A stretch of DNA of 64,000 nt from Persephonella hydrogeniphila (GTDB taxonomy: Bacteria > Aquificota > Aquificia > Aquificales > Hydrogenothermaceae), in the NCBI RefSeq assembly GCF_900215515.1, contig NZ_OBEI01000001.1, positions 248,001 to 312,000 of the forward strand, given 5' to 3'. A program made the translations under genes and the position numbers. Each line of letters opens with the position of its first letter. Positions within the stretch are counted from its first letter, which is position 1. Shown in pieces: positions 43,927 through 52,058 of this stretch. The notes below the pieces were generated by a model. The model was given only the letters and a program-made list of their open reading frames with translations, was not told the DNA's origin and did not search any database.

Positions 43927-44178
43927 TTAGTCCTGTGTTTTTCTTACATAAAAAATGTATATTCCATCTTCTTCTTTATAACCTAAAAACTCGTTCCCTG
44001 TCGTCTCACACCACGCAGGAACATCCTGAACAGCACCTTCGTCATCAGCAAGAAGTTCAATAATCTGTCCTTTTTCTGCTTTTTTCATAACTTTTGCCAG
44101 CTCTGTTATCGGGATAGGACAGTAAGTTCCGGTAGCATCATGAACTATATCTGGTTTTATGTTCTCTAACTCCATCAT
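43927..44178 (-). CDS. TusA/SirA-like sulfur carrier protein
   Basis: The 83-residue protein has the TusA signature DATGTYCPIPITELAKVMKK, where the cysteine in TYCPIP is the sulfur-accepting residue. A second cysteine occurs in PAWCETTGNEF. TusA proteins pass persulfide sulfur to tRNA-modifying or sulfur-oxidation enzymes. It overlaps the upstream PP-loop gene by 4 bases, pointing to sulfur delivery to that enzyme. Confidence 0.9.
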   Translation of the reverse strand: MMELENIKPDIVHDATGTYCPIPITELAKVMKKAEKGQIIELLADDEGAVQDVPAWCETTGNEFLGYKEEDGIYIFYVRKTQD

Positions 44179-45227
44179 ATCCTCCAGCTTTCTATAGTTT
44201 CTTCCTGCATTCTCTGCCCCGTGATTACACCTTTATTATTTCCTTCAGGAGATGTATATCTGATATCTATTTTACCATTTTCATCTGTTTTGGAGTACCT
44301 TGCAACAAGGTCTGCTATCATCTTTATCTCATCCTCTGTAAGTCCTCTGTTTTCAATCGTTTTTGCTATTGCAACGGCACCTTTACCGACAGGCTCAAAA
44401 AACCAGTAGTTGTTTTTTAAACCTTTTATAAAGTTTCCTTCACCTTCATTTCTTGACACAACCACTTTAGTTCCTGTTGGAAGCCTAAAATGTCTTCCTA
44501 TAGTGAGAAGGTAAAGATCTTCTCTTGTTATCCTGTTCTCTACAGATACAGTCTCAAGGTATTTTCTTGCAAAATTCTCATCAGTAAGATAACAGCACCC
44601 ACCTGCAGGTTGCTCAAATTCGTCTATTCCTAATTCTTTTGCAAGCTGTAGCTGTCTTTTCCTGCTTCTGCCTACTATTCCTTCAAGCTTTTCTCTGTCT
44701 ACCCAACCTTTTATTTCCGGTACTGTCGGAGGGAGAACTTTTGCAGAAAGAGGTTTTAGAACAAGACCTTCAACCCCAGCCTCTCTTTCTATGATTTTCA
44801 TCGCTTTGAGGTGCTGACTCATAGGTCTCTGGTTTAGAACTTCTCCTGATACTATAAAATCTGCATCAAATTCTTTCATCAGCTCTTTTGCCTTTTTATA
44901 CATAAAAGCTCTACAGTCTATGCAGGGATTTATATTTGATCCATAACCGTATTTCGGATTTGTTACTATATCAAAATAATCTTCTGATATATCAACTATC
45001 TCGAGTCTAAAGCCATATTTTGCTGCATACTTCAAGGCAGGATTCATATAATGGGAACCGTCAGGTTTTTTCTCTCCTCTTCTTCTCTTGGTCTCTGTAA
45101 TACAAAATCCCGTATAAAAATGAACTGCGATTACATCAATACCTTGATTCTGAACTAATTTAATGGCTAAAGTACTATCAAGACCTCCAGAGTATAAAGC
45201 TATAGCTCTTCTTTTATCCTTCATCAC
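44175..45227 (-). CDS. PP-loop ATPase of the MnmA/ThiI type with C-terminal NFACT-R-like domain
   Basis: The 350-residue protein has an ATP-pyrophosphatase motif LYSGGLDSTLAIKL at the N-terminus, NPCIDCRAFMYKKAKELM (C-x2-C, as in MnmA NPC), and VSGEVLNQRPMSQHLKAM. A GGCCYLTDENFARKY segment supplies paired cysteines. The C-terminal part (about 260-330) resembles an NFACT-R/DUF814 RNA-binding domain. A tRNA-thiolating enzyme is the likeliest role, using sulfur from the adjacent TusA, but neither THUMP nor the full MnmA tail is present, so tRNA position is open. Confidence 0.75.
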   Translation of the reverse strand: MMKDKRRAIALYSGGLDSTLAIKLVQNQGIDVIAVHFYTGFCITETKRRRGEKKPDGSHYMNPALKYAAKYGFRLEIVDISEDYFDIVTNPKYGYGSNINPCIDCRAFMYKKAKELMKEFDADFIVSGEVLNQRPMSQHLKAMKIIEREAGVEGLVLKPLSAKVLPPTVPEIKGWVDREKLEGIVGRSRKRQLQLAKELGIDEFEQPAGGCCYLTDENFARKYLETVSVENRITREDLYLLTIGRHFRLPTGTKVVVSRNEGEGNFIKGLKNNYWFFEPVGKGAVAIAKTIENRGLTEDEIKMIADLVARYSKTDENGKIDIRYTSPEGNNKGVITGQRMQEETIESWRI

Positions 45228-45682
45228 CCTATATGCTCTAAATCGATACCTTCTTCTTCCTCTTCTTCTATACAGTCTGGAATTTTATTTGCTTCTTCAA
45301 TTCTTCCCTGTTTTAAAAGGTAGTCTTTTATAGCAACATGGAGTGTTTCAAGACCTAAGTTTGTGCAGTGAATTTTCTGTGATGGAAGACCACCTAACTC
45401 TTCAAAAATCTCTTTGTATGTGAGATTCAGAGCATAGTCTATAGGTTTTCCCTTTACCATTTCTGTAAGAACAGAAGATACTGCGATAGCAGAACCACAT
45501 CCAAATGTTTTGAACTTGACATCTGTTATAACATCTGTTTCTTTATCAACTTTTATAGTAAAAAGCATTGCGTCTCCACATGATGGATTACCACACTGTC
45601 CATATCCATCCGGATCAGGTATCTCTCCAAGATTTCTCGGATTCATGAAATGATCCATCACCTTTTCAGTATATTCGAACAT
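45224..45682 (-). CDS. iscU: IscU/NifU N-terminal Fe-S scaffold
   Basis: The 152-residue scaffold starts YTEKVMDHFMNPRNLGEI and has the three cluster cysteines in SCGDAM (Cys35), FGCGSAIA (about 63) and IHCTNLGLE (about 106), plus an acidic C-terminal tail (CIEEEEEEG). The usual LPPVK chaperone motif is not seen. No cysteine desulfurase gene is in this operon. It is the first gene of a six-gene unit running to aroE and is divergent from a small regulator gene. Confidence 0.93.
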   Translation of the reverse strand: MFEYTEKVMDHFMNPRNLGEIPDPDGYGQCGNPSCGDAMLFTIKVDKETDVITDVKFKTFGCGSAIAVSSVLTEMVKGKPIDYALNLTYKEIFEELGGLPSQKIHCTNLGLETLHVAIKDYLLKQGRIEEANKIPDCIEEEEEEGIDLEHIG

Positions 45683-46029: not shown

Positions 46030-47793
46030 TTGGTAAGAATAAAGGCTATCTTCAGTTACAGGTTTAATTACCTTAATTTGCTTATACCTATACTTATAGG
46101 AGTATGTGCCGGTCTGTTTGGAATAGCCTTTTTGAAAGCCATTCATTTCTTCACGGAACTTTTTCTTGTAGATTTTGCAGGTTATATACCTCCTTATCCT
46201 CTTGGAGAAGGGGGTAGCCTTTCTTATAAGTTTTTTATGGAACATCCCTATATGATACCTATTTCTACAGCTGTAGGAGGCTTGATAGTAGGCATCCTTG
46301 TCCAGTTATTTTCTCCTGAATCTGCAGGTGTAGGAACAGATGCTGCTATAAAAGCTTTTCACGAGAAAAAAGAGATAGGAATAAGAACATCTATCTGGAA
46401 ATTAATAACTTCTGCCGTAACAATTGGAAGTGGACAGGTTTCTGGAAAAGAAGGTCCTATTGCTCTGATTGGGGCTGGTATAGGGTCTTTTATCGGGAAA
46501 ATATTCCATTTACCAGAAAAAGAAAGGAAGATAGCTCTTGCTGTTGGGTTAGGAGCAGGAATTGGGGGAGTATTCAAAGCTCCATTTGCCGGAGCGATTA
46601 TCAGCTCTGAAGTTTTTTATAAAAAAGATTTTGAGATAGAAACTCTTGTACCTGCCTTCATAGCATCTTTTGTCTCTTTTATTATTGTTGCCTCTGTTTT
46701 TGGCTTTTCTCCTTTATTTTATGTAGAACTTCCCCAGTTTACAGGTTTTTCTTTTTACGATGCAGTAGGATACATAACACTCGGTATGACTACAGCTTTT
46801 ATAGCAAGGCTGATGATATACGCCCTTGATTCTATCAGGAGCTTATTTGAAAGACTTGAAGTGCCGTTTTTTGTCAAGCCTGCCATAGGAGGTTTTTTTG
46901 TAGGCATTATTGGGATGTCTGTTCCTGTAGCTATAGGAACAGGATATGGATGGCTACAGCTAATAATGTTAGGAAAATTAGAGTATTTCCCTGAATGGAA
47001 GATCATAATAAGCATATTTCTTGTTATACTTGCTTTTGCCTTCACACTTGGTTCAGGTGGTTCAGGGGGTGTTTTTGGTCCTTCCCTTGTAATAGGTGGT
47101 TTAACAGGGGCTTCTGTCTATTTTTTTCTTAAAAATTTTTTATTTTTTCCTGAAAGTTCAACCTTTAATCTGACGGCTTTCACTGTAGTCGGAATGGTCT
47201 CTACTTTTGCTGCAGCAGCAAAAGCCCCCTTATCTACTATTATTCTGGTTGCTGAAATAACAGGAGGATATCAACTTCTTATCCCTGCTACCATAGCTGT
47301 TGCTGTATCCCATTTCTTATCCGGAGAAAAAAGTATCTTTAAAAGTCAGGTCAACACAAAACTGGATTCACCTGTTCATTACGATGAGTTCAAATATATG
47401 CTTCTTCGTAAATATCTTGTTAAGGATGTTATGAAAAAGGAAGTATACACTACAACTCCAGACACAACTGTTTTATATGCAAGTAAATTTATGGAACAGT
47501 ATAGTATTTCTGCACTTCCGGTAATAGATGAAGAAAACAGAGTGATCGGCCTTGTTACAAGCACAGATATTATAAAAGCCTGTGGTATGAATCTGACAGA
47601 AACAAAAGTCAGAGATATAATGAAAGAAAATCCTTTATGTATTACTCAGGATTTAACGCTTTTTGATACTTTAAGTATATTTGTAGAAAACAATATCGGT
47701 GTTGCACCTGTTGTTAATAATCTTGAAGACAAAAAAATCATCGGTATTATATCAGATTATGATATAGGTAAAGTTCTTACAGGAAAAGTGTAA
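46030..47793 (+). CDS. ClC-family chloride channel/transporter with CBS pair
   Basis: The 587-residue membrane protein has the ClC filter motifs GSGQVSGKEGPIALIGAG (gating glutamate present) and GSGGSGGVFGPSLVIGG, and ISSEVFYKKDFE where the internal glutamate aligns with the proton glutamate of exchangers. Two CBS domains occupy about 458-585 (VKDVMKKEVYTTTPDTTVLY and VRDIMKENPLCITQDLTLF). Start is TTG at 46030; no ATG lies nearby in frame. A bidirectional terminator follows. H+/Cl- exchange is more likely than a channel, from the two glutamates. Confidence 0.9.
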   Translation: MVRIKAIFSYRFNYLNLLIPILIGVCAGLFGIAFLKAIHFFTELFLVDFAGYIPPYPLGEGGSLSYKFFMEHPYMIPISTAVGGLIVGILVQLFSPESAGVGTDAAIKAFHEKKEIGIRTSIWKLITSAVTIGSGQVSGKEGPIALIGAGIGSFIGKIFHLPEKERKIALAVGLGAGIGGVFKAPFAGAIISSEVFYKKDFEIETLVPAFIASFVSFIIVASVFGFSPLFYVELPQFTGFSFYDAVGYITLGMTTAFIARLMIYALDSIRSLFERLEVPFFVKPAIGGFFVGIIGMSVPVAIGTGYGWLQLIMLGKLEYFPEWKIIISIFLVILAFAFTLGSGGSGGVFGPSLVIGGLTGASVYFFLKNFLFFPESSTFNLTAFTVVGMVSTFAAAAKAPLSTIILVAEITGGYQLLIPATIAVAVSHFLSGEKSIFKSQVNTKLDSPVHYDEFKYMLLRKYLVKDVMKKEVYTTTPDTTVLYASKFMEQYSISALPVIDEENRVIGLVTSTDIIKACGMNLTETKVRDIMKENPLCITQDLTLFDTLSIFVENNIGVAPVVNNLEDKKIIGIISDYDIGKVLTGKV

Positions 47794-47817: not shown

Positions 47818-49053
47818 TTATCTTACATTTTTAAACTTATCTGCTTTTTTGGTAAATTCTTCCCAGTTCTCAGGACCAAAAGGTGATATTTCTCTCAGTC
47901 TTTGTACTGCTGCAGGGTATTTTTCTAAGATGTAATCTATATCTTCCTCTGTATTTTCTCTACCAAGAGAAAATACTATAGAACCGTTAGAAGCCTCTTT
48001 ATCTACGCCTATAGCAGCAAGAACATGGGACTGTTTAAGAGCATAGGAAACACATGCTGAACCGGAAGCTGTGTATATTTTATGGTAGTCAAGCATAAGA
48101 AGCATAGCTTCCCCTTCGATATACATAACAATCAGCGAAAGGTGGTTCGGAAGTCTCTTTTCTGGATGTCCTGTAAATTGTATATAAGGAATCTTTTCTT
48201 CTATTCCCTTTTTCAGTTTGTCTCTTAACTTTTTCAGTCTGTTTACTCTGTCGTCCATCTCCTTTATAGCCAGTTCTGCAGCAGCACCCATACCTACTAT
48301 CAATGGTACAGGTTCTGTTCCTGCTCTTCTTCCACCTTCCTGAATACCACCTTCAATAAGGGGTTTCAACCTAACACCTTTTCTTACATATAAACCACCT
48401 ACTCCTTTAGGAGCGTAGAAGTAATGACCTGTGAATGAAGCCATATCAAGACCCCATTCTTCAACATTGACAGGTGTATGTCCAACAGCTGCAGCTATGT
48501 CTGAGTGGAAAACGACCCTCGGGTTTTTTTCCTTAGCTGCTGCAACGAGAGCTGGCATATCCTGAAGGGTTCCTATTTCTCTGTTTGCATAGCCAATAGA
48601 TACAAGGATTGTATCCTCCCTGACTGCTTCTGCTACCTGTTCTGGATGTATAATTCCGTAATTATCAGGTTGAAGATATGTAATTTCAAATCCTTCCTTT
48701 TCAAGAGTCTTACAGGAATGTAGAACAGAATGGTGTTCTATAGCTGATACGACAATATGTTTTCCTCTTCTTGTTATTCCGGGAGCTTTAGCAAACCCTT
48801 TTATTGCAAGGTTGTTAGCCTCAATTGCTCCTGATGTATATACTATATCTTCAGGTCTTCCTATATTAAGAAGTTCTGCTACCTGTTCTCTTGCTCTGTT
48901 AATCGCTTTCTTCGCTTCAACACCAAGTTTATGGAGAGATGTGGGATTTCCAAAGTGTTCGGTAAAATAAGGCTTCATAACCTCAACTATCTCTTCAGGC
49001 ACTGGTGTTGTAGCAAGATGATCTGCATATACGATTCCTCTTTTCTCTAACAT
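47818..49053 (-). CDS. IscS/NifS-like protein without the PLP lysine
   Basis: The 411-residue protein aligns along its length with cysteine desulfurases: ATTPVPEEIVEVMKPYF, FGNPTSLH, AIEHHSVLH, VVFHSD, GGRRAGTEPV and the nucleophilic-cysteine loop TASGSACVSYALKQSHV (Cys334). However the PLP-lysine motif SxxGHK reads SFTGHYFYAPKG, with Tyr211 in place of lysine. The glutamine after the cofactor aspartate is Ala188, and the ATE threonine is Ile77. It should not bind PLP normally. It lies 14 bases after mrp in one transcript. Confidence 0.85.
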   Translation of the reverse strand: MLEKRGIVYADHLATTPVPEEIVEVMKPYFTEHFGNPTSLHKLGVEAKKAINRAREQVAELLNIGRPEDIVYTSGAIEANNLAIKGFAKAPGITRRGKHIVVSAIEHHSVLHSCKTLEKEGFEITYLQPDNYGIIHPEQVAEAVREDTILVSIGYANREIGTLQDMPALVAAAKEKNPRVVFHSDIAAAVGHTPVNVEEWGLDMASFTGHYFYAPKGVGGLYVRKGVRLKPLIEGGIQEGGRRAGTEPVPLIVGMGAAAELAIKEMDDRVNRLKKLRDKLKKGIEEKIPYIQFTGHPEKRLPNHLSLIVMYIEGEAMLLMLDYHKIYTASGSACVSYALKQSHVLAAIGVDKEASNGSIVFSLGRENTEEDIDYILEKYPAAVQRLREISPFGPENWEEFTKKADKFKNVR

Positions 49054-49067
49054 ATTTTATCCTCCTC

Positions 49068-50138
49068 TTATTGCTTACTTAGTTTTTTAATTAATTCTTC
49101 TGCTACTTTCATAAAAGCCTTTGACGATTCTGAATCTTCTTTGGCAAGTACTACCGGTATTCCTAAATCGGCAAATTCTGCTACTTTAGGTTCTATAGGA
49201 ATTCTGCCTAAAAGTTCAGTATTGTATTGCTTTGCTACCTCTTCTGTTTTTGATTTTCCGAATATCTCATATTTTTTTCCTGAGTCTGGACATACAAAAT
49301 AACTCATATTCTCTACTATTCCCAGTACAGGTATCTGTACCTCATTGAACATCTGTATACCTTTTTTTACATCTATCAGGGCTACATCCTGAGGTGTTGT
49401 TACAATAACAGCTCCATCTATTTCTGCCGTCTGTCCCAATGTTATCTGAACATCTCCCGTTCCGGGAGGAAGATCTATAATAAGAAAATCCAATTCTTCT
49501 CCCCAGTTAATGTCAAAAAGAAACTGCGACAGTGCTTTAAAGAGAACAGGACCTCTCCATATCACAGGAGTATCTTCAGAAGGAAGCAGTAAGCCTATTG
49601 ACATAATTTTTATGCCGTGAACTTCAGGAGGGATAAGCTTGTTATCTGGAGTTGCTGTTACCTGTTTATCCTTTGCTCCAAGCATTGTGGGACCAGAAGG
49701 TCCGTACATATCTGCATCAAGGTATCCTACGTTGTATCCCATCTTTCTAAGAGCAGCTGACAGATTAACAGCTACTGTGGATTTTCCTACACCACCTTTA
49801 CCGGAAGCCACAGCAATAACTTTTTTGACTTTTGGAATTCTTCTTCTTGATTCAAAAGGGTTTTGCTGTGCAGTCGGAGGAGGTTGTGGAGGCTGTTGCT
49901 GTTTTGGAGGTTCTGATGTAAACTCTACCTGAACATTTTTCGCCCCTATAGATTTTAATACTGTCTCTGCCTTTTCCCTCAGATAGTCGTGGTATTTCTC
50001 ACTTGGAGAAAAAAGTTTTATATAAACATTATCATCTTCTATCTTTAAGTCTCTCATCAGGTCTGCAAGGGAAAAACTTACCCCTATTTCCTGAAGATTA
50101 GTATTCTTTAGAGTATCTATAACTCCCTGAAGTGCCAT
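49068..50138 (-). CDS. mrp: Mrp/ApbC-type Fe-S carrier P-loop ATPase
   Basis: The 356-residue protein has an N-terminal MIP18/DUF59-like domain (1-75), a Pro/Gln-rich linker (about 76-95) and the Mrp ATPase: deviant Walker A ASGKGGVGKSTVAVNLSAAL, DADMYGPSGP and IDLPPGTGD. The cluster-binding motif is normally C-x2-C after ENMSYF; here it is CPDSG, Cys283 with Ser286, so only one of the two bridging cysteines is present. Mrp proteins carry 4Fe-4S clusters between subunits. It is upstream of the IscS-like gene. Confidence 0.93.
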   Translation of the reverse strand: MALQGVIDTLKNTNLQEIGVSFSLADLMRDLKIEDDNVYIKLFSPSEKYHDYLREKAETVLKSIGAKNVQVEFTSEPPKQQQPPQPPPTAQQNPFESRRRIPKVKKVIAVASGKGGVGKSTVAVNLSAALRKMGYNVGYLDADMYGPSGPTMLGAKDKQVTATPDNKLIPPEVHGIKIMSIGLLLPSEDTPVIWRGPVLFKALSQFLFDINWGEELDFLIIDLPPGTGDVQITLGQTAEIDGAVIVTTPQDVALIDVKKGIQMFNEVQIPVLGIVENMSYFVCPDSGKKYEIFGKSKTEEVAKQYNTELLGRIPIEPKVAEFADLGIPVVLAKEDSESSKAFMKVAEELIKKLSKQ

Positions 50139-50264: not shown

Positions 50265-50966
50265 TTAGATGATAATTCTATTTTTTATAAGGGTTTTGAA
50301 AAACTTCTCCATATGATTGGATATAAGTTCAAGATTTACAGAGTATTTAACAGAAATCTCTGTAGAGATTTTATACAGATTTCCTGATTCTAAGCTGTTC
50401 AATATCTCATACAAAAAGTCTGTCAGCTGTATGTATTCTACTTCAAAGCTTTCAGGATTTTGATAAATAATCAGGTTATACCTGCCCTTTTTATGCTTAA
50501 AACTTGTTATTCCTATTTGAGATATATGGTGAACAGGATACTGAAAAACAACAGCTCTTGCAGAGTTTGATAATCTGTAGGTATTTTGCCAGCTGAACTC
50601 AGACTCTTTCAAGGGTACATCCTGATTAAAAATCTCTACCTCAAGCCATTCATACCGGAGCAGATCCTTCAAATATTCTTCATCTTTGAAAACGTCTTTC
50701 TTCTCAATATACTCAATAAAATGAAAAGGCAGATCCTGAAGATACGGGGATGTGAAGTTCTGGCTTGATACGAAGCTTTCTATTAGATCTTCCCATTTAT
50801 CTTCTGTTATTTTTTTCGTCAAAGGAAAAACTGAAGATAAAAATTCATATACTGTATGTCTGATAAGATTTCTGTAGATTTCCAGTCCTTCTTCCGGGAG
50901 ACTTAACGGATTTCCACCTTCTTTGACAGATTTATAAAACTCTTCAATAATCTTTTTATACTGCAT
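50265..50966 (-). CDS. DUF2063 partner protein of the MNIO cassette (HvfC/BufC-like)
   Basis: The 233-residue protein has the N-terminal DUF2063 helical pattern (EGLEIYRNLIRHTVYEFLSSVFPLTKKI, then DLPFHFIEYIE). In MNIO peptide systems this protein binds the precursor peptide and presents it to the DUF692 enzyme. Its start overlaps the MNIO gene stop by 11 bases. Gene order precursor-MNIO-partner matches the BufABC and HvfABC arrangement. Confidence 0.85.
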   Translation of the reverse strand: MQYKKIIEEFYKSVKEGGNPLSLPEEGLEIYRNLIRHTVYEFLSSVFPLTKKITEDKWEDLIESFVSSQNFTSPYLQDLPFHFIEYIEKKDVFKDEEYLKDLLRYEWLEVEIFNQDVPLKESEFSWQNTYRLSNSARAVVFQYPVHHISQIGITSFKHKKGRYNLIIYQNPESFEVEYIQLTDFLYEILNSLESGNLYKISTEISVKYSVNLELISNHMEKFFKTLIKNRIII

Positions 50967-51780
50967 TTTTTACTACTTCCCTTAGATAATCATACTCATT
51001 AAGAAGCTCTCTGTAAGGGGGTATATTGTTATCTCTTTCAAGAAGAACAGGTTTTTTCCCTATTTTTTTCAGTGTAAAAATCAGAAGCTGATAAACAGAC
51101 TGGGAAATTTCAGAACCATGAGTATCTAAAATTAAATCTTCCTTTATTTTTTTATGACCGGCTATATGTATATAAGACACCCACTCTGGTTTTATTTTCT
51201 CTATATACAGATAAGGATCAAACCGGTGATTACAAGAGTTCACATAAACGTTATTTACATCAAGTAGCAATTTACATCCTGTTTTTTCAATTATATATCC
51301 GATAAAGTCTGTTTCTTCCATATCTCCTGAAAGCTCTACATAACTTGATGCATTTTCTAGAGATATCTCTCTACCTAAAAAATCCTGAATAAAAGAAATT
51401 TTTTGAGACATATCTTCAGCAAGCTCCCTGGTAAAGGGGAGGGGAAAAAGATCATAAATATAACTGCCATAGAGAGAAGAAAAACTAAGATGTTCTGAGT
51501 ATATAGAAATCTCATAGTAATCTAAAAAGTCCTTTAACTCTTTTAAGAAATACTTATTAACAGGGTCAGGACTTCCTACAGATAGGGAAAGCCCGTGACA
51601 TACTACAGGAAAATCTTTTCTGATATCTTCAAAAAGTTTTCTAAGATATCCACCTTTTTTAATCCAGTTTTCAGGAGCAATCTCAAACCATTCAGGTTTA
51701 AGGTCATAATCGTGGATATCTTCAATAAAAGCTGTTCTTAATCCTAAGCCTGTACCTTTTATTTCCCCATCGAACCACAT
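50956..51780 (-). CDS. MNIO (DUF692) multinuclear iron oxygenase of a peptide-modification cassette
   Basis: The 274-residue enzyme has the metal-ligand motifs of the MbnB/BufB/HvfB family: WFEIAPENW, CHGLSLSVGSPD, SEHLSF, SLENASSY, LLDVNNVYVNSCNH, HIAGH, DTHGSE and LLERDNNIP. It binds two or three irons and oxidises cysteines of a precursor peptide. The start ATG lies inside the precursor gene, 22 bases before that gene's end, so translation is coupled. The C-terminal region overlaps DUF2063 by 11 bases. Confidence 0.93.
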   Translation of the reverse strand: MWFDGEIKGTGLGLRTAFIEDIHDYDLKPEWFEIAPENWIKKGGYLRKLFEDIRKDFPVVCHGLSLSVGSPDPVNKYFLKELKDFLDYYEISIYSEHLSFSSLYGSYIYDLFPLPFTRELAEDMSQKISFIQDFLGREISLENASSYVELSGDMEETDFIGYIIEKTGCKLLLDVNNVYVNSCNHRFDPYLYIEKIKPEWVSYIHIAGHKKIKEDLILDTHGSEISQSVYQLLIFTLKKIGKKPVLLERDNNIPPYRELLNEYDYLREVVKNAV

Positions 51781-52058
51781 TTTCCACAGGCCATCTCTTT
51801 TACTTTTTCTTTTGTTCCCATAATTTTTTTACACTCTTTCATCTGCTCCATCATTTCTTTTCCACATTTCATCTCTTCCATCATCTTCCTGCAACTTTCC
51901 ATTTTCTCTTTCATCTCTTTGCCACATTTCATCTCCCCAGATGCCAGTAGAACCCTGCTGTCTGATACCTTCCCCTGAGAATAATCTACTACAGATGCCT
52001 GTGAACCTATAAATGCAACTCCTATAGCTGTAGAAACAGCTGTTAATTTCTTTCTCAT
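51759..52058 (-). CDS. Met/Cys-rich precursor peptide of the MNIO cassette
   Basis: The 99-residue product has a signal-like N-terminus (MRKKLTAVSTAIGVAFIGSQ), a polar spacer, and a core from residue 42 with six cysteines (45, 56, 65, 76, 91, 94) and twelve methionines but no histidine. Residues 43-62 and 63-82 are two copies of a 20-residue unit with C-x10-C, each beginning MKCGKEM. Three K-C-G motifs occur, including GKCGSM near the end, echoing the EGKCG motif modified in HvfA-type peptides. Position before the DUF692 gene makes it the substrate. Copper binding is inferred from composition. Strong GGAGG site upstream. Confidence 0.8.
   Translation of the reverse strand: MRKKLTAVSTAIGVAFIGSQASVVDYSQGKVSDSRVLLASGEMKCGKEMKEKMESCRKMMEEMKCGKEMMEQMKECKKIMGTKEKVKEMACGKCGSMGK

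What the first reader, a model, noticed from the sequence alone, without database searches (positions are those of the whole stretch)
47818..49053. Cysteine-desulfurase homologue with the PLP lysine replaced by tyrosine
In IscS the cofactor lysine lies in SxxGHK; here the sequence reads SFTGHYFYAPKG with Tyr211. Two other cofactor contacts are also changed (Gln to Ala188, Thr to Ile77), while the catalytic-cysteine loop (SGSACVS, Cys334) and the overall fold are kept. The gene is intact, so it may be selected for a role other than PLP chemistry, such as a persulfide carrier or scaffold partner. It is the only desulfurase-like gene in the window.
Basis: partly seen in the sequence, partly recalled or inferred. 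Interest (0 to 1): 0.72.

Follow-up and report, generated by a model that had tools for sequence, protein, structure and literature searches.

The report
Cysteine desulfurase lookalike lacking its cofactor
A gene that looks like the enzyme cells use to pull sulfur out of cysteine has lost every residue needed for that chemistry yet is kept intact across a whole bacterial order, next to the scaffold that builds iron-sulfur clusters, which suggests these bacteria build the clusters from sulfide instead of cysteine.

Summary
The 411-aa gene (minus strand, 47818-49053) is an intact IscS/NifS homologue with Tyr211 for the PLP lysine. At least six active-site positions are degenerate (L13, I77, R158, A188, Y211, V360), while Cys334 is kept. 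This is fixed, not local. All 91 distinct Aquificales orthologue genes read carry I77, R158 and V360, with Tyr211 (38/38, window's family) or Leu211 (53/53, Aquificaceae); Cys334 is 91/91. The gene sits with Mrp, and in many relatives with IscU, a ThiI-like protein and TusA. A canonical second copy exists in this genome. In 26 of 34 near-complete Aquificaceae genomes, however, the lysine-less protein is the only IscS-like gene, and SufS reaches its cut-off in 0 of 136 Aquificota. Lysine-less IscS is a known kind: A. fulgidus IscS (Asp199) and, in the PDB, seven chains of the A. aeolicus orthologue that look like a stepwise reactivation. New here: a supported clade with Elusimicrobiota and Verrucomicrobiota homologues, separate from the archaeal loss. 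Most likely role: a PLP-free IscU partner whose Cys334 serves as cluster ligand or persulfide site for sulfide-fed Fe-S assembly (inferred).

The parts
47818..49053 (-). IscS/NifS-like protein without the PLP lysine ('IscS*'), 411 aa
   Evidence: Aminotran_5, 2e-72; best NifS TIGR03402 462 bits, below its 530.75 cut-off; model pLDDT 92
48421..48423 (-). codon of Tyr211, at the place of the PLP-Schiff-base lysine
49015..49017 (-). codon of Leu13 (canonical Ala of DNAATT)
48823..48825 (-). codon of Ile77 (canonical Thr/Ser)
48580..48582 (-). codon of Arg158 (canonical Asn)
48490..48492 (-). codon of Ala188 (canonical Gln)
47974..47976 (-). codon of Val360 (canonical substrate-binding Arg)
48052..48054 (-). 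codon of Cys334, the retained catalytic-loop cysteine
   Evidence: loop 333-338 is low-confidence in the model
49068..50138 (-). Mrp/ApbC (NUBPL-type) Fe-S carrier ATPase, directly upstream; upstream of the orthologue in 83 of 85 Aquificota loci
45224..45682 (-). IscU (NifU_N) scaffold with three cluster cysteines and Asp37
44175..45227 (-). ThiI/MnmA-like PP-loop protein with NFACT-R_2 domain
43927..44178 (-). TusA-family sulfurtransferase
46030..47793 (+). ClC-type channel on the opposite strand, inserted between IscS* and IscU in the window's genus only; not thought to be part of the system

Best explanation
The protein is a cofactor-free descendant of IscS, kept as the dedicated partner of the scaffold IscU in a sulfide-rich lifestyle. 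SHOWN: the PLP lysine and at least five other pocket residues are replaced and fixed across the order; Cys334 and IscU's cluster-binding residues are invariant; the gene is under purifying selection; it is linked to Mrp and, in many relatives, to IscU, ThiI-like and TusA genes; many relatives have no other cysteine-desulfurase-like gene. INFERRED: it cannot release sulfur from cysteine. It forms an IscS2-IscU2 complex in which the mobile Cys334 loop reaches the IscU site and completes the ligand set of the nascent [2Fe-2S] cluster, or holds one sulfur atom (persulfide) supplied from sulfide, polysulfide or TusA. The sulfur therefore comes from inorganic sulfide, not cysteine.
For: Degenerate residues and invariant Cys334 in 91/91 distinct genes. 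dN/dS about 0.01-0.08. IscU present in 99/105 genomes of families f1+f2 and 0/31 of f3-f5; IscS* in 97/105 and 0/31 (my count). IscU Cys35, Cys62, Cys106 and Asp37 in 88/88 sequences. Synteny. In 26 of 34 f2 genomes of >=95% completeness it is the only IscS-like gene; SufS model over its cut-off in 0/136. Fold matches A. fulgidus IscS in its IscU complex (Z 53.9, 1.2 A). PMC7585200 (passages) reports that A. fulgidus IscS lacks desulfurase activity because Asp replaces the Lys and gives a Cys ligand to IscU's [2Fe-2S]. PMC9978102 (passages): E. coli K206A, H104, D180 and Q183 variants lose activity. PMC13015791 (abstract and passages): H2S replaces IscS in E. coli, and IscU is needed.
Against: No biochemistry. 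PLP can remain non-covalently bound without the lysine (E. coli K206A; the A. fulgidus structure 4EB5 is drawn with PLP). The window's own genome and about 31 of 41 genomes of its family keep a second, IscS-like copy (canonical in the 13 of these that I inspected), so the protein is not their only option. In f2 the IscU gene lies elsewhere in the genome, and G034 (99% complete) has IscU but no IscS-like match at all.
Confidence: 0.7

Rival explanations
1. Persulfide relay: Cys334 is loaded by TusA, a rhodanese or the canonical desulfurase and passes sulfur to IscU or the ThiI-like protein, with no role as a cluster ligand.
For: TusA and a ThiI-like protein follow IscU in the operon, and the ThiI-like gene follows IscU in A. 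aeolicus; the loop Cys is kept; some Elusimicrobiota have canonical IscS, lysine-less IscS and IscU in tandem.
Against: Most f2 genomes have no canonical copy to act as donor; the A. fulgidus precedent favours a ligand role.
Confidence: 0.3
2. It is a regulator or heterodimer partner of the canonical copy (a 'dead' subunit), not a scaffold partner.
For: A second copy is present in this genome and in about 31 of 41 genomes of the family; the 13 inspected there are canonical.
Against: About 33% identity only; no second copy in 26 of 34 near-complete f2 genomes; the linkage is to Mrp and IscU, not to the canonical copy.
Confidence: 0.08
3. It still binds PLP non-covalently and catalyses another reaction, or uses another cofactor in the emptied pocket.
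For: Asp185 and His107 are kept in 91/91 genes; lysine-less IscS can hold PLP.
Against: Gln, Asn, Thr and the substrate Arg are all lost, and the replacement differs between families (Tyr or Leu), which does not look like a new catalytic base.
Confidence: 0.06
4. Decaying gene, local mutation or sequencing error.
For: None found beyond the lysine change itself.
Against: Same state in 91 distinct genes with silent codon changes at each altered site; dN/dS far below 1.
Confidence: 0.01

Closest known systems
A. aeolicus orthologue in the PDB: 9wfy, 9wfe, 9wfb, 9wf8, 9wew, 9wer, 9wep (titles and paper not seen)
   Same: 9wfy is 100% identical over 396 aa to the f2 orthologue in G001, so it looks like the wild type: I13, I77, R158, P188, L211, V360. 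It is the closest solved relative of the window protein (phmmer 7.6e-188).
   Different: Leu instead of Tyr at 211. The other six chains carry canonical residues step by step (N158+K211; +R360; +Q188; +T77; +A13; +M154, V187, S208), which I read as a reactivation series by others.
Archaeoglobus fulgidus IscS (4eb5, 4eb7, 4hvk, 4r5f D199K)
   Same: IscS fold, Lys lost, Gln->Ala, Arg->Leu, Cys kept, iscU adjacent; reported inactive.
   Different: Lys->Asp, Asn and Thr kept; on the tree it nests within canonical sequences (99/97* with a canonical archaeal one), i.e. an independent loss.
Methanosarcina acetivorans IscS1
   Same: Reported to lack the lysine and proposed to act like A. fulgidus IscS (PMC7585200 passages).
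   Different: Sequence not compared here.
Canonical IscS/NFS1/NifS (1p3w, 3lvm, 8tvt, TIGR02006, TIGR03402)
   Same: Fold (Z about 53-54), Cys loop, His107, Asp185.
   Different: PLP lysine and other pocket residues replaced; below the equivalog cut-offs.
MIS, minimal ISC system (IscS+IscU)
   Same: An IscS-like protein and IscU as the core gene content of the locus.
   Different: MIS is described as having a cysteine desulfurase (PMC12192291 passages); here that activity should be absent. Other ISC components were not searched for.

Membership tests
PLP-dependent group I cysteine desulfurase (IscS/NifS) | class V aminotransferase fold and sequence family | tested here: met
   (PF00266 2e-72)
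PLP-dependent group I cysteine desulfurase (IscS/NifS) | Schiff-base lysine in GHK/AHK | tested here: not met
   Tyr211; 0 of 91 orthologue genes have Lys
PLP-dependent group I cysteine desulfurase (IscS/NifS) | PLP/substrate residues Thr77, Asn158, Gln188, Arg360 | tested here: not met
   Ile, Arg, Ala, Val
PLP-dependent group I cysteine desulfurase (IscS/NifS) | mobile-loop catalytic cysteine SGSAC | tested here: met
   Cys334, 91/91
PLP-dependent group I cysteine desulfurase (IscS/NifS) | curated equivalog score | tested here: not met
   462.2 vs 530.75 (NifS), 385.2 vs 643.2 (IscS)
PLP-dependent group I cysteine desulfurase (IscS/NifS) | cysteine desulfurase activity | not testable with these tools
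   needs purified protein
A. fulgidus-type lysine-less IscS | Lys lost, Cys kept, iscU adjacent | tested here: met
   (IscU downstream in 21 of 32 f1 loci; in the window a ClC gene lies between)
A. fulgidus-type lysine-less IscS | common descent of the lysine loss | tested here: not met
   archaeal group nests in canonical sequences, 99/97* with L275
A. fulgidus-type lysine-less IscS | loop Cys ligates IscU [2Fe-2S] | not testable with these tools
   needs the IscS*-IscU complex
Lysine-less IscS clade of Aquificota, Elusimicrobiota and Verrucomicrobiota | groups together away from canonical rows | tested here: inconclusive
   99/98* with one lysine-bearing Nitrospirota row inside; AU test without that row p 0.2; 3 changes on the tree; long branches present

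The most novel reading that the evidence does not exclude
There is an old clade of IscS-like proteins in Aquificota, Elusimicrobiota and Verrucomicrobiota that gave up cysteine desulfuration but kept the loop cysteine and IscU. In many Aquificaceae it is the only IscS-like protein, so their ISC system is fed by inorganic sulfide. A similar change arose independently in archaea, so losing desulfurase activity while keeping IscS as an assembly partner is a recurrent solution. It implies that the platform/ligand role of IscS is separable from, and outlives, its enzymology.
Probability: 0.55. Interest if true: 0.78.

Novelty: new variant of a known kind. Interest (0 to 1): 0.64.

Why it matters
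Textbook ISC systems start with a PLP enzyme that takes sulfur from cysteine. Here a whole order keeps the enzyme's body and its cysteine without the chemistry, and many members have no substitute. That makes two open questions directly testable: what IscS does for cluster assembly besides supplying sulfur, and whether hyperthermophilic, sulfide-exposed bacteria build Fe-S clusters from sulfide as methanogens do.

Tried and rejected
Pseudogene or read error: rejected by 91 distinct orthologue genes with silent codon changes at the altered residues. A shifted lysine taking over: the next lysine (PKG, Lys216) is invariant in canonical and degenerate sequences alike, so it is not a replacement. 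A SufS substitute: the SufS model passes its cut-off in 0 of 136 Aquificota genomes although it does in 11 of 14 controls. One single origin of all lysine-less IscS: the archaeal group nests in canonical rows. A first tree without the degenerate columns and with few outside rows had put all lysine-less rows together at weak support (74/81); the larger trees overrode it. An Arg158-Asp185 salt bridge in place of the pyridinium ring: only an idea, since I had no coordinates to measure. Titles of the 9we*/9wf* entries: not obtained (they are not listed by the fold library, which ends 2026-04-08). Literature: searches of the open-licence library listed no paper whose title or shown abstract describes a lysine-less IscS of Aquificota; I read only the passages named in the report, so this is not proof that none exists.

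Dropped rows: the tree sets are hand-picked subsets (59, 62 and 67 rows). L194 and nine other rows were left out of the last tree; L196-L198 are in the first tree and in its column-dropped version but in neither later one. The second copy of G024 was not read.

Full report
CHECK. The gene is on the minus strand, 47818-49053, 411 aa, uninterrupted. Three more pocket positions are changed: Leu13, Arg158 and Val360. It is the only PF00266 match inside the window. Pfam calls it Aminotran_5 (2e-72); NCBIfam scores stay below the NifS and IscS cut-offs.

CONSERVATION. The genome-contig scan with this protein gave 80 named loci; a search of 136 Aquificota genomes gave a match in 102. Counting matches of at least 60% identity, contig-edge fragments included, I find the orthologue in 38 of 41 genomes of the window's family (f1) and 59 of 64 of a sister family (f2), and in 0 of 31 genomes of the other three families (my count). 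Named members of f1 are Persephonella, Sulfurihydrogenibium and Hydrogenothermus, i.e. Hydrogenothermaceae. I equate f2 with Aquificaceae because G001 has a 1,551,335-base chromosome, the recalled size of A. aeolicus VF5 (contig length). Of the orthologue ORFs in the loci held, 116 of 116 lack the lysine (some genes sit in two loci). After removing identical genes there are 91 (38 f1, 53 f2): Ile77, Arg158, Val360, Asp185, His107 and Cys334 in 91 of 91; Ala or Pro at 188; Leu13 in f1 and Ile13 in f2; Tyr211 in 38 of 38 f1 (TAC 27, TAT 11) and Leu211 in 53 of 53 f2 (five codons). Pairwise dN/dS against the window gene is about 0.01-0.08 where dS is defined; dS exceeds 1, so the values are rough, and three pairs had no defined dS. 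By contrast 53 of the 55 other loci keep the lysine. Twenty-one columns separate the two sets; several lie in the cofactor pocket and the Cys loop.

SURROUNDINGS. Directly upstream is Mrp/ApbC; it is there in 83 of 85 Aquificota loci (L009-L033, L119-L178). One of the two exceptions is cut by its contig end; L167 is a real one. In f1 the ancestral order seems to be Mrp, IscS*, IscU, ThiI/NFACT-R2, TusA, AroE; IscU is downstream in 21 of 32 f1 loci shown. A ClC channel gene on the other strand sits between IscS* and IscU in loci of the window's genus only. In A. aeolicus, IscU, the ThiI-like gene and AroE lie together elsewhere. IscU is present in 99 of 105 f1+f2 genomes and in 0 of 31 others. 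In 88 of 88 IscU sequences the three cluster cysteines and Asp37 are kept; the 32 Aquificota ones have two more cysteines.

OTHER DESULFURASES. The window's genome has a second, fully canonical copy, L002, about 33% identical. Of 21 second copies inspected in the phylum, 17 are canonical and 4 are lysine-less. Of 34 f2 genomes with at least 95% completeness, 33 have IscS*, and in 26 it is the only match to the query. In four more (G028, G029, G036, G051) the second copy also lacks the lysine. No Aquificota genome passes the SufS cut-off (0 of 136), and the rows that one search listed for PF00266 showed no other strong candidate in these genomes (its list is cut). A canonical cysteine desulfurase is therefore probably absent from many Aquificaceae; a non-homologous enzyme cannot be excluded.

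KNOWN RELATIVES. The closest solved structures are seven chains named only 'cysteine desulfurase'. 9wfy is identical over 396 aa to the G001 protein and carries all the degenerate residues. The other six bring back canonical residues stepwise at nine positions, several of them in my independent signature list. I infer that someone is reactivating this very protein; I saw neither titles nor a paper. A. fulgidus IscS has Asp for the lysine (entry title of 4r5f; genome copy), is reported inactive and gives a Cys ligand to IscU's cluster; M. acetivorans IscS1 also lacks the lysine (PMC7585200, passages). The AlphaFold model (pLDDT 92, pTM 0.91) matches human NFS1, A. fulgidus IscS and E. coli IscS alike (Z 53-54). 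A shared fold shows no function.

WIDER FAMILY. Searches around three outside hits (149, 246 and 194 genomes) and reading of the 30 best loci each gave: Elusimicrobiota, 30 of 30 lysine-less (mostly Val; 27 with IscU in the short locus); archaea, 29 of 30 with Asp (30 with IscU); Verrucomicrobiota, 3 with Arg, 4 with Gln and 23 canonical. These are the best-scoring loci, not a random sample. In three Elusimicrobiota loci the order is canonical IscS, lysine-less IscS, IscU. On a 67-row tree rooted with a SufS-type row and with 14 active-site columns removed, Aquificota, Verrucomicrobiota and Elusimicrobiota proteins form a clade (99/98*) together with one Nitrospirota protein (L306) that keeps the lysine but has lost the Gln and the Arg. 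The archaeal group nests in canonical sequences (99/97*). The tree needs 3 changes; holding the 29 non-archaeal lysine-less rows together without L306 is not rejected (AU p 0.2). Some branches are long, so the deep clade is likely, not certain.

MECHANISM. Without the lysine, E. coli IscS holds some PLP but is inactive, and Gln183, Asp180 and His104 are also needed (PMC9978102, passages). The window protein has lost the Lys, Gln, Asn, Thr and substrate Arg equivalents, so desulfuration is very unlikely. The conserved parts are the fold, the Cys loop and the link to IscU. In E. coli, H2S can replace IscS as sulfur source if IscU is present (PMC13015791, abstract and passages), and the SMS system uses sulfide with no desulfurase (PMC12192291, passages). 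I therefore propose a PLP-free IscU partner whose Cys334 is a transient cluster ligand or persulfide site, with sulfide as the sulfur source. Steps shown: conservation, linkage, absence of other desulfurases in many relatives. Steps inferred: no PLP, IscU complex, sulfide source, ligand or relay.

VERDICT. The kind (lysine-less IscS) is known from archaea, and the Aquificota protein is already in the PDB. The order-wide fixation, the frequent lack of any other desulfurase and the link to other bacterial phyla are, as far as my searches show, the new part.

Noticed in passing
L199:7121-8188 (- strand), also L200-L202 (G029, G051, G028): A second lysine-less IscS paralogue (motif SFDGPS, loop SxSPC) in some Aquificaceae; in L199 it overlaps a homocitrate-synthase-like gene and an aldehyde-ferredoxin-oxidoreductase-like gene in what looks like a nif cluster (NifB-, NifE/N-, NifX-, NifA-like, by eye).
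   Followed up: partly
L306 (G139, Nitrospirota), minus-strand ORF 1131-2429: An IscS 52% identical to the window protein that keeps the lysine but has Met for the Gln and Leu for the Arg: a possible intermediate state, beside IscU.
   Followed up: partly
L317, L318, L319: Elusimicrobiota operons with canonical IscS, lysine-less IscS and IscU in tandem, which hints at a division of labour.
   Followed up: partly
Aquificota families f3-f5 (31 genomes, G105-G135): No match to the window's IscS-like protein, no IscU and no SufS over the cut-off: their Fe-S sulfur source is unclear.
   Followed up: no
window 50265-52058 (- strand): Cys-rich 99-aa peptide followed by MbnB/TglH/ChrH-type (DUF692) and DUF2063 proteins: looks like a metal-linked RiPP (bufferin-like, name recalled) operon.
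   Followed up: no
window 46030-47793 (+ strand): ClC channel with CBS domains inserted against the operon direction between IscS* and IscU, only in loci of the window's genus.
   Followed up: partly
L012: Contig labelled 'Flavobacteriales bacterium' carries a 94% identical copy with the Persephonella-type gene order: probably a mis-binned contig.
   Followed up: no
G034 (f2, 99% complete): Has IscU but no IscS-like match at all; true loss or assembly gap.
   Followed up: no
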